Shown here piece after piece: positions 4,874 to 22,537 of a DNA stretch of 32,253 bases. Where the stretch lies: contig JAMPHU010000035.1 of assembly GCA_023663225.1 (NCBI GenBank), positions 1 through 32,253 on the forward strand. The letters run 5' to 3'. Position numbers and translations under genes: made by a program. The notes under the pieces were generated by a model, which was not told where the DNA came from, made no database searches, and was given only the letters and a program-made list of their open reading frames with translations. The DNA is from Candidatus Gastranaerophilales bacterium. Its GTDB lineage: Bacteria > Bacillota > Clostridia > Lachnospirales > Lachnospiraceae. How positions within the stretch are numbered: position 1 is the stretch's first letter; each line of letters begins with the position of its first letter.

Positions 4874-4926
4874 GGGTGAAAAGCCATTTTCTCGCATCCG
4901 GCGTAACAGTTCAGCCATAAAGAGAT

Positions 4927-5117
4927 TGTGGTTTCGACTTCGGGACGGAGCATAGGTTACAGAGAAGGCTTTCTGTGACGGCCAGATAAGCGTTCCGATG
5001 AGCCTCATGCACGGCAATGCCCGCCATTGGACGGGCATTGCCGGAGTCTCATCTCCACATCTGACTCACGCCACAGAAAGCCTTCTCTGTAACCTATGCT
5101 CCTGTATCCCACAATTC
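4927..5117. repeat. 190-base foldback repeat, copy 1
   Basis: This is a long imperfect palindrome. The outer stem is 31 perfect base pairs (4947-4977 with 5072-5102), extended outward by weaker pairing (TTGTGG near 4927, CCACAA near 5110). Inside are two short stems: CAGAT with ATCTG, and GATGAG with CTCATC. At the tip is a 12-base-pair hairpin (5012-5043, CGGCAATGCCCG, loop CCATTGGA). A second copy lies at 22345-22537 with only about nine differences, two pairs of which keep the pairing. Size and form suggest a non-autonomous MITE-like element or a structured RNA. It sits about 50 bases upstream of the yicC promoter. I cannot name a known family. Confidence 0.85.
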
Positions 5118-5169
5118 TACAAGTATCCCCTCCCTACAATCCGGATTACAACATTCTGCAAGACCACTC

Positions 5170-5216
5170 GACATTGCCAGTAATTTAGCTCCGGCGAAGT
5201 AAATTACTGGCATGTC
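5170..5216. other. Long perfect hairpin in the yicC-rqcH gap
   Basis: TGCCAGTAATTTA (5175-5187) and TAAATTACTGGCA (5200-5212) form 13 perfect pairs around a 12-base loop. Beyond a single bulged T, GACA and TGTC add four more pairs. No T-run follows on either strand, so it does not look like a simple terminator. It lies between two larger foldbacks and may be part of the same insertion history. Confidence 0.65.
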
Positions 5217-5245
5217 AAACGATTTTAACGATTGCTGTGATCCGA

Positions 5246-5402
5246 ATTGTGCGGATGATATCTTCCAAAGCAGACGCTAGCGAGCCGTCGGTACTAATAG
5301 TCAACTACGTTGACTATACTGCCGTACTTTGGCAGCTTATGTACCGCTACGAGCGAGGTGCAGCGAAAGCGTGTCTGCGTTGGAAGATACCATCCGCACA
5401 AT
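5246..5402. repeat. 157-base branched foldback with 23-base terminal inverted repeats
   Basis: The ends (5246-5268 and 5380-5402) are inverted copies with one mismatch in 23 bases. Inside, GCAGACGCT pairs with AGCGTGTCTGC apart from a small bulge, and CGGTAC (5289-5294) pairs with GTACCG (5341-5346). Within that lie two side-by-side hairpins: TAGTCAAC/GTTGACTA (5298-5316) and CTGCC/GGCAG (5319-5335). The whole folds as a branched structure. It differs in sequence from the neighbouring foldback and has no second copy in the window. It ends about 40 bases before the rqcH promoter. A MITE or structured RNA is likely. Confidence 0.7.
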
Positions 5403-5441
5403 GACACTCGCTACGATCTTGGCTGAACTGTTACCCTCCGG

Positions 5442-5470
5442 TTGAACTCTCCTCCAAAATCTGCTACAAT
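5442..5470 (+). promoter_or_regulatory. Sigma-A promoter for rqcH
   Basis: TTGAAC (5442-5447) and TACAAT (5465-5470) are separated by 17 bases. The start codon of rqcH is about 50 bases downstream, preceded by GAGGT 7 bases from the ATG. Confidence 0.7.
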
Positions 5471-16713: not shown

Positions 16714-16830
16714 ATGGCCATCCGGCCGTTTCCTGCCATGAATAAGGTCATTCTATCATAAATTGCTTTGCAATTTATGATACATGGCCATCCGGCCGTT
16801 TCCTGCCATGAATAAGGTTATTATATCATA
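16714..16830. repeat. 47-base direct repeat pair around a perfect palindrome
   Basis: Two 47-base copies (16714-16760 and 16784-16830, period 70) differ at two positions. The first copy runs into a perfect palindrome, TATCATAAATTG/CAATTTATGATA (16754-16782, 5-base loop), which fills the space between the copies. Both copies contain GGCCATCCGGCC. The block lies in the untranslated leader of the LytTR gene. It looks like a local duplication; a regulatory leader role is possible. The rest of the 16654-16910 gap holds the repeats described separately. Confidence 0.8.
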
Positions 16831-22344: not shown

Positions 22345-22537
22345 TGTGGTTTCGGGACTAGGGACGGAGCATAGGTTACAGAGAAGCCTTTCTGTGACGG
22401 CCGGATGGGCGTTCCGATGAGCCTCATTCACGGCAATGCCCGCCATTGGACGGGCATCGCCGGAGTCTCATCTCCACATCCGACTCACGCCACAGAAAGG
22501 CTTCTCTGTAACCTATGCTTCTGTATCCTGCAATTTC
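22345..22537. repeat. 190-base foldback repeat, copy 2
   Basis: This copy matches 4927-5117 in sequence, length and fold. The 31-base-pair outer stem is 22366-22396 with 22491-22521, and the apical hairpin loop CCATTGGA is identical. Against copy 1, one outer-stem G:C pair has flipped to C:G, and one A:T pair in the inner stem has become G:C. Both arms changed each time, so pairing is kept. It starts just after the secreted LysM gene and could act as its terminator. Confidence 0.85.

What the first reader, a model, noticed from the sequence alone, without database searches (positions are those of the whole stretch)
4927..5117. Two copies of a 190-base foldback with compensating base changes
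The element at 4927-5117 recurs at 22345-22537 with about nine differences in some 170 aligned bases. In the 31-base-pair outer stem one G:C pair in copy 1 is C:G in copy 2; in the inner stem CAGAT/ATCTG became CGGAT/ATCCG. Both arms changed each time, so pairing survived. The loop of the apical hairpin is identical. This points to selection on a folded RNA or DNA, or to arm-to-arm correction in a hairpin. One copy precedes a housekeeping promoter and the other follows a LysM gene, so it is dispersed. It could be a MITE or an undescribed structured RNA family.
Basis: seen in the sequence. Interest (0 to 1): 0.75.

Follow-up and report, generated by a model that had tools for sequence, protein, structure and literature searches.

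The report
Jumping foldback with RNA-like conserved core
A repeated DNA foldback in a gut bacterium turns out to be one copy of a wider family with an RNA-like conserved core, whose long paired arms change from copy to copy yet stay complementary, and this copy sits inside a small transposon-like element.

Summary
Confirmed and extended. The copies (94% identical) fold far better than shuffles. The host genome (Lachnospiraceae, probably Acetatifactor) holds 24 near-full-length and 17 partial copies. Copy 1 lies inside a 532-bp element, 4903-5434, with perfect 14-bp inverted ends. Elements with such ends, here and in same-genus genomes, often have 8-bp target duplications (26 of 57; 0.6 expected), like intact IS66-family elements of the genus. 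But the six that carry a whole foldback show at best 6 of 8 (the window's), and the host has no IS66 transposase.

Covariation is real (24 of 58 pairs change on both sides; 0 of 500 shuffles), with two regimes. A core of about 75 nt, found in four genera, folds better on the minus strand, as an RNA would. The distal arms diverge between copies yet stay complementary, with little or no preference for G.U over A.C, which suggests arm-to-arm copying in DNA. The copies scanned match no Rfam family above chance; smaller elements with the same ends match Clostridiales-1 'RNA'. Function unknown; RNA role inferred.

The parts
4903..5434 (.). TIR-bounded element carrying foldback copy 1 (532 bp)
   Evidence: Perfect 14-bp inverted ends GTAACAGTTCAGCC / GGCTGAACTGTTAC; insertion inferred from the yicC-NFACT gap, 714 bp here against 151-331 bp without a TIR in 12 of the 16 relatives that keep the pair
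4903..4916 (+). left terminal inverted repeat GTAACAGTTCAGCC
5421..5434 (-). right terminal inverted repeat
4895..4902 (.). left octamer CATCCGGC, possible decayed target duplication (6 of 8)
5435..5442 (.). right octamer CCTCCGGT, possible decayed target duplication (6 of 8)
4942..5105 (-). foldback H1, copy 1; RNA-like strand is minus
4947..4980 (.). outer-stem arm of copy 1
5069..5102 (.). outer-stem arm of copy 1
4996..5054 (-). conserved core of copy 1 (pattern match; sense AGATGAGAC...GGCTCATCG on minus)
5246..5402 (.). second foldback module inside the same element (arms 5246-5275/5373-5402)
   Evidence: the same module beside other H1 copies by eye
22361..22524 (-). foldback H1, copy 2; no TIR beside it
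22415..22473 (-). conserved core of copy 2 (pattern match)

Best explanation
The finding is one copy of a dispersed foldback family (H1). SHOWN: H1 has a conserved core of about 75 nt on a long, nearly perfect stem; it is repeated in this genome and in at least three other genera; some copies here, copy 1 among them, lie inside small elements with IS66-type ends (GTAACAGTTCAGCC), a family that has 8-bp target duplications. INFERRED: an IS66-family transposase acting in trans moved these elements, and copies without clean ends (copy 2, for example) are decayed, recombined or spread by another route. INFERRED, moderately supported: the core is kept as a folded RNA read from the minus strand. INFERRED, moderately supported: complementarity of the distal stem is kept mainly in DNA, one arm templating the other (template switching or hairpin repair at a palindrome), so a mutation in one arm is soon copied to the other and arms diverge between copies while staying paired. 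Selection for an intact stem may add to this. The function of the core is not known; my best guess is a transcript processed or bound as a hairpin for the element's own benefit, because no orientation bias to neighbouring frames was seen.
For: Copy number: 24 near-full-length copies; core pattern in 7 of 80 genomes: G398 42, G000 24, G001 14, G161 14, G518 12, G005 1, G081 1; reversed-pattern control 0. Mobility: 110 hits of the 13-base end at one mismatch or less in G000, reversed control 2; exact 14-mer in 28 of 61 genomes of the genus, G000 included; flanking octamers match at 7 or 8 of 8 in 26 of 57 elements, 16 exact; random pairing 0.6; 6-, 7-, 9- and 10-bp registers 2, 4, 2, 0; 4 of 30 IS66 loci show both ends with an exact 8-bp duplication: L193 and L200 GTAACTATTCAG, L188 GTTACAGTTCAG, L191 GTTACTTTTCAT; gap. 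Covariation: (98.7% of cells paired, 24 pairs and 152 cells changed on both sides, score 0.255 against 0.113, 0 of 500 shuffles; slid controls 0.074 or less). Core as RNA: minus strand folds better in 23 of 23 distinct G000 copies and 12 of 12 from relatives; 6S control 29 of 30 in its own sense; core alone: G161 14/14, G398 34/38, G000 10/10, G001 8/10, four single copies 4/4, G518 7 of 12 with 4 against; core pair seen as CG 26, UG 5, UA 4. Arms: L039 and L095 differ only by an A:T/T:A flip in the columns counted; other transversion flips; 4 of 23 G000 copies carry an A.A mismatch at one pair; distal stem GU 14, AC 7, other 15; three other genera GU 61, AC 56; in 20 of 78 copies the inverted repeat runs 8 nt or more beyond detected homology to other copies.
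Against: None of the six TIR-bounded elements that hold a whole H1 core shows a duplication of 7 of 8 or better (6, 0, 1, 1, 2, 4 of 8); two with shortened H1 do (L107 8, L131 7). Only 10 of 24 G000 copies have a TIR within 140 nt on the tested side and 6 have one on each side (several loci end at contig ends). No IS66 transposase in the host assembly; 19 of 61 genomes of the genus have one. In the other genera a TIR at three mismatches or less was found in 1 of 69 loci, over 400 nt from the core, so the carrier differs there. GU exceeds AC in the Acetatifactor-like genomes when the whole stem is counted (G000 19 to 2, G001 15 to 4), as RNA selection would give. Copies share ancestry, so the strand asymmetry is not 23 independent results. 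The minus-strand structure came from an RNA energy model, which allows GU and not AC. No transcript has been seen.
Confidence: 0.45

Rival explanations
1. Pure RNA selection: the whole foldback, stem included, is a structured RNA and all double changes are ordinary compensatory substitutions.
For: Strong covariation over the whole structure; strand asymmetry; G.U exchange in core pairs; proximal stem GU 25, AC 0; whole-stem GU excess in G000 and G001.
Against: In the distal arms GU is little preferred (14 to 7; 61 to 56 in three other genera); many double changes are transversion flips that cannot pass through G.U; arms reach over 100 nt in G398, more than an RNA would be expected to need.
Confidence: 0.22
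2. Pure DNA palindrome: a MITE-like foldback with no RNA role; complementarity is kept by template switching only, and the core is conserved because a protein binds it as DNA (cruciform or single-stranded hairpin).
For: TIRs and target duplications in the carrier family, no orientation bias (10/6/9/7 of 32 usable copies), little GU preference in distal arms, inverted repeats beyond shared homology. Template switching as a maker of compensatory changes is described in PMC8794818 (abstract and opening read).
Against: The core keeps internal loops that arm copying should erase, and it folds better on one strand in several genera. A single-stranded DNA hairpin could also be strand-specific, so this rival is not excluded.
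Confidence: 0.25
3. H1 spreads mainly by its own unknown route, and IS66-type elements carry it only sometimes as a passenger.
For: 14 of 24 G000 copies have no TIR on the tested side, whole-H1 elements lack clean duplications, and 68 of 69 loci in other genera have no TIR at three mismatches or less; copy 2 and the Acetatifactor copy L440 have none beside them.
Against: In G000 a TIR stands at about the same distance (78-89 nt from the core match) beside 10 of 24 copies, and shortened H1 versions occur within TIR elements with good duplications.
Confidence: 0.35

Closest known systems
IS66-family insertion sequences and their non-autonomous derivatives
   Same: Ends begin GTAAC; 10 of the first 12 bases equal those of L193/L200 and 11 of 12 those of L188, IS66 elements of the same genus; 8-bp target duplication in the family
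   Different: No transposase in the element or the host assembly; inside are structured foldback modules; whole-H1 elements lack clean duplications
Rfam RF01699 Clostridiales-1 RNA (PMC2864571, passages seen)
   Same: Small elements of 160-180 bp with the same ends match the full model (12 of 16 loci searched, 11 of them at the TIR element, 27-44 bits; L394, with one such end and a diverged other end, reaches 54.5 bits against a cut-off of 48)
   Different: H1 itself has no match. Over-cut-off RF01699 copies have other ends (TGATGCC...)
MITEs and dispersed palindromes such as ERIC, NEMIS/Correia and REP (recalled)
   Same: Short, dispersed, foldback, with TIRs or hairpins
   Different: Conserved asymmetric core plus long arms that diverge from copy to copy while staying paired
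IStrons (PMC4227781, search listing and start of abstract only)
   Same: A structured RNA joined to an IS element
   Different: No intron family was matched here; self-splicing not tested

Membership tests
IS66-type mobile element (non-autonomous) | Terminal inverted repeats starting GTAA (recalled rule; checked against IS66 copies of the same genus) | tested here: met
   GTAACAGTTCAGCC at both ends of 4903-5434; IS66 copies L193/L200 GTAACTATTCAG
IS66-type mobile element (non-autonomous) | 8-bp target duplication | tested here: inconclusive
   Family of TIR elements: 26 of 57 at 7/8 or better, control 0.6. Window element 6 of 8; the other five whole-H1 elements 0-4 of 8; shortened-H1 L107 8 and L131 7
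IS66-type mobile element (non-autonomous) | A source transposase in the same genome | tested here: not met
   PF03050: 0 matches in G000; 19 of 61 genomes of the genus have one
Rfam RF01699 Clostridiales-1 | Score at or above the gathering cut-off of 48 bits (for H1) | tested here: not met
   No RF01699 match to H1 at E 1 or below, none at gathering
Rfam RF01699 Clostridiales-1 | Score at or above the cut-off (for small elements with the same ends) | tested here: inconclusive
   27-44 bits; one (L394) 54.5 bits
Structured RNA | Covariation beyond chance | tested here: met
   R-scape itself was not available
Structured RNA | Strand-specific folding | tested here: met
   with 6S RNA as positive control; copies not independent, G518 weak
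Structured RNA | Discrete transcript | not testable with these tools
   No RNA-seq
MITE | Empty site in a relative | tested here: inconclusive
   yicC-NFACT gap 151-331 bp without a TIR in 12 of 16 relatives with the pair, against 714 bp here; no base-exact junction shown

The most novel reading that the evidence does not exclude
H1 is a mobile hairpin of a new kind: a conserved core that spreads between sites and genera while its palindromic arms are rewritten, and in some genomes extended, at each site by templating on the opposite arm, so that each copy makes its own long perfect hairpin. The core would be the recognised part (RNA or single-stranded DNA), and the palindrome itself would be self-propagating.
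Probability: 0.2. Interest if true: 0.85.

Novelty: new variant of a known kind. Interest (0 to 1): 0.66.

Why it matters
Compensatory change is the standard evidence for a functional RNA. Here is a natural series (106 copies by core pattern in five genomes; arms from about 20 to over 100 nt) in which the same foldback shows RNA-like change in its core and change with little G.U preference in its distal arms. It could separate RNA selection from template switching, an open question. It also suggests that some small elements matching the Rfam family Clostridiales-1, listed as a probable RNA, move as transposon-like units, so 'candidate structured RNA' and 'mobile element' need not exclude each other.

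Tried and rejected
Rfam at gathering over the window: none. E-value scans: no match at H1 among the three H1-carrying loci L001, L005 and L050, and in eight loci of other genera only four weak plant-microRNA-type matches far below their cut-offs, which I take as chance matches to perfect hairpins. IS66 transposase in the host: none. Plasmid and phage records: no blastn match to 4903-5434. A first exact pattern in named genomes found nothing; the core pattern found 11 stretches in 3 genome assemblies. Orientation to neighbouring open frames (110 codons or more): 10/6/9/7 among 32 usable of 40 loci, no clear bias. My first GU/AC test on the plus strand (GU 13, AC 16) suggested no RNA selection at all; the minus-strand fold changed that for the core and proximal stem. 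I considered that the outermost arms in G398 are flanking host DNA copied inverted; partial similarity of some ends between copies leaves this open. Ungapped identity between arms of different copies (median 0.30-0.33 in G518 and G398) understates relatedness, since inner parts look related by eye. Paper searches listed nothing that I recognised as H1; of these papers I saw passages of PMC2864571, the abstract, opening and outline of PMC8794818, and listings of the rest.

Full report
THE OBSERVATION. The two copies are real: 4942-5116 and 22361-22535 are 94% identical over 175 nt, with 32-34-nt arms at 97% complementarity. They fold at -113 and -114.7 kcal/mol with z of -13.3 and -11.3, and 0 of 200 shuffles fold as well.

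COPY NUMBER. In the host genome (G000, 3.29 Mb in 111 contigs, 94.5% complete) the stretch 4900-5140 has 24 near-full-length matches and 17 further places with parts of it (sequences read). A core pattern gives 24 hits in G000, and its reversed form none. Of the three named assemblies that share a core pattern, two are uncultured Lachnospiraceae and one an uncultured Acetatifactor. The contig lengths of one Lachnospiraceae assembly equal those of relative G001. I therefore take the host to be Lachnospiraceae, probably Acetatifactor.

THE UNIT AROUND COPY 1. Copy 1 lies in a 532-bp stretch, 4903-5434, with perfect 14-bp inverted ends GTAACAGTTCAGCC. The 13-base end occurs 110 times in G000 at one mismatch or less, the reversed control twice. 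The exact 14-mer occurs in 28 of 61 genomes of the genus, G000 included. Among 57 elements of this genus with both ends (two mismatches allowed) and distinct flanks, 26 have flanking octamers that match at 7 or 8 of 8 positions (16 exact). Random pairing of flanks gives 0.6; the 6-, 7-, 9- and 10-bp registers give 2, 4, 2 and 0. So elements with these ends are mobile or were recently.

For H1 itself the case is weaker. Six of the 57 elements hold a whole H1 core, and their octamers match at 6 (the window's), 0, 1, 1, 2 and 4 of 8. Two with shortened H1 match at 8 (L107) and 7 (L131). Of the 24 G000 copies, 10 have a TIR (three mismatches or less) within 140 nt on one side, at 78-89 nt from the core match, and 6 have one on each side. 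Several loci end at contig ends, so these are lower bounds.

EMPTY SITE. Of 30 NFACT loci fetched (own plus 29 relatives), 16 relatives have yicC within 1.5 kb upstream and 13 do not. In 12 of the 16 the gap is 151-331 bp without a TIR. One more (L415, 211 bp) has a TIR hit, and three have longer gaps (661, 721 and 1004 bp, the second with a TIR hit). In G000 the gap is 714 bp, that is 182 plus 532. No base-exact junction could be shown.

THE CARRIER. Of 30 IS66-transposase loci, 4 show both ends with an exact 8-bp duplication: L193 and L200 in the closed relative G006 (1817 bp, ends GTAACTATTCAG), L188 (GTTACAGTTCAG) and L191 (GTTACTTTTCAT). PF03050 is found in 19 of 61 genomes of the genus but not in G000. 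The ends and duplication fit IS66. The transposase that acted in G000 is inferred, not found.

COVARIATION. On alignment A1 (35 distinct copies from four genomes, minus strand), 58 pairs hold in 98.7% of cells. 24 pairs have changes on both sides. The covariation score is 0.255 against 0.113 for shuffles (0 of 500 reach it), and the structure slid by 1-3 columns scores 0.074 or less. Shuffles do not respect relatedness, but the slid controls do.

TWO REGIMES. (a) Core. The minus strand folds better than the plus strand in 23 of 23 distinct G000 copies (by 14.3 kcal/mol on average) and in 12 of 12 copies from relatives. 6S RNA as positive control folds better in its own sense in 29 of 30. With the core alone the same sense wins in G161 14 of 14, G398 34 of 38, G000 10 of 10, G001 8 of 10, four single copies 4 of 4, and weakly in G518, 7 of 12 with 4 against. 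Core pairs that vary mostly exchange through G.U (for example C-G 26, U-G 5, U-A 4). The motifs AGATGAGAC and GGCTCATCG, partly fixed by the search pattern, and the purine loop beside them recur in all lineages. (b) Arms. In the distal outer stem non-Watson-Crick cells are GU 14, AC 7, other 15; in the proximal stem GU 25, AC 0. Nearest copies often differ by two-sided changes, including transversion flips: 39 two-sided, 27 one-sided and 26 unpaired differences, a pair of mutual neighbours being counted twice. Outer pairs carry 0.81 extra types per pair, against 0.19 per unpaired column. Over whole arms the other genera give GU 61 and AC 56 (G398 48/31, G518 8/17, G161 5/8). G000 gives 19/2 and G001 15/4, which include the proximal G.U. 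Strand-neutral change predicts parity and RNA selection predicts an excess of GU. So the arms look DNA-maintained in the other genera, and distally here, while the Acetatifactor-like whole-stem figures go the other way.

A WIDER FAMILY. A covariance model of A1 finds full-length relatives in 4 of 299 family genomes searched with strict filters: G000 and three other genera, G518, G398 and G161. The core pattern counts 42 copies in G398, 14 in G161 and 12 in G518. Aligned arms are 19-161 nt long and about 90-96% Watson-Crick. Between copies of G518 and G398 the ungapped identity of 30-nt arm ends has a median of 0.30-0.33, though inner parts look related by eye. In 20 of 78 copies (G518 8 of 12, G398 12 of 32, G161 0 of 14, G000 0 of 20) the inverted repeat reaches 8 nt or more beyond any detected homology to another copy. 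This fits arms rewritten or extended by templating on the opposite arm; very fast divergence without extension is not excluded. In these genera a TIR at three mismatches or less was found in 1 of 69 loci, over 400 nt from the core. Template switching that creates and maintains paired stems is described in PMC8794818 (abstract and opening read).

RELATION TO KNOWN FAMILIES. The H1 copies scanned match no Rfam family above chance. The smaller elements with the same ends do match RF01699 Clostridiales-1 over the full model: 12 of the 16 loci searched, 11 of them at the TIR element, 27-44 bits, below the cut-off of 48. One, L394, with one such end and a diverged other end, reaches 54.5. The paper that introduced the family lists it as probably an RNA and not cis-regulatory; the term search of its main text found 'transpos' once, in another motif's name, and 'mobile' not at all. 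Over-cut-off RF01699 copies occur in 27 of 196 order genomes and 24 of 101 genus genomes, in some genomes in many copies. By eye, some have longer inverted ends than the model and short AT-rich repeats at the edges; this was not tested statistically.

FUNCTION. No clear orientation bias to neighbouring frames (10/6/9/7 among 32 usable of 40 loci) speaks against a leader or terminator of host genes. I therefore favour a selfish role: a hairpin product of the element, with a conserved recognised core. This is inference. Whether the recognised form is RNA or single-stranded DNA cannot be told from sequence.

Noticed in passing
window 5246-5402: A second dispersed foldback module (arms ATTGTGCGGATGATATCTTCC...) in the same element; by eye a version with a similar tip but other arms occurs in other loci of the genome.
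   Followed up: partly
L079, L100, L161, L169, L170 (near 1500-1690): Elements of 160-190 bp with the same TIRs and hairpin-rich interiors, most of those scanned similar to Rfam Clostridiales-1, in several species of the genus with very different stems; their sense strand folds better in 20 of 22.
   Followed up: partly
L343, L344, L373, L374, L384 (match at 1501 onward): Over-cut-off Clostridiales-1 copies seem to have inverted ends reaching about 25 nt beyond the Rfam model and AT-rich direct repeats of about 5 bp at the edges; seen by eye only.
   Followed up: no
L554, L562, L569, L571, L572 (G398): Near-perfect inverted repeats of over 100 nt per arm around the H1 core, with 57-98 nt beyond detected homology to other copies; a test bed for palindrome evolution.
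   Followed up: partly
window 16714-16760 and 16784-16830: A 47-nt direct repeat, 96% identical, 70 nt apart, of unknown nature.
   Followed up: no
G000 contigs C26, C33, C42, C96, C97, C111: The first TIR lies about 40 nt from the start of these contigs, so these repeats seem to break the assembly and the true copy number may be higher.
   Followed up: no
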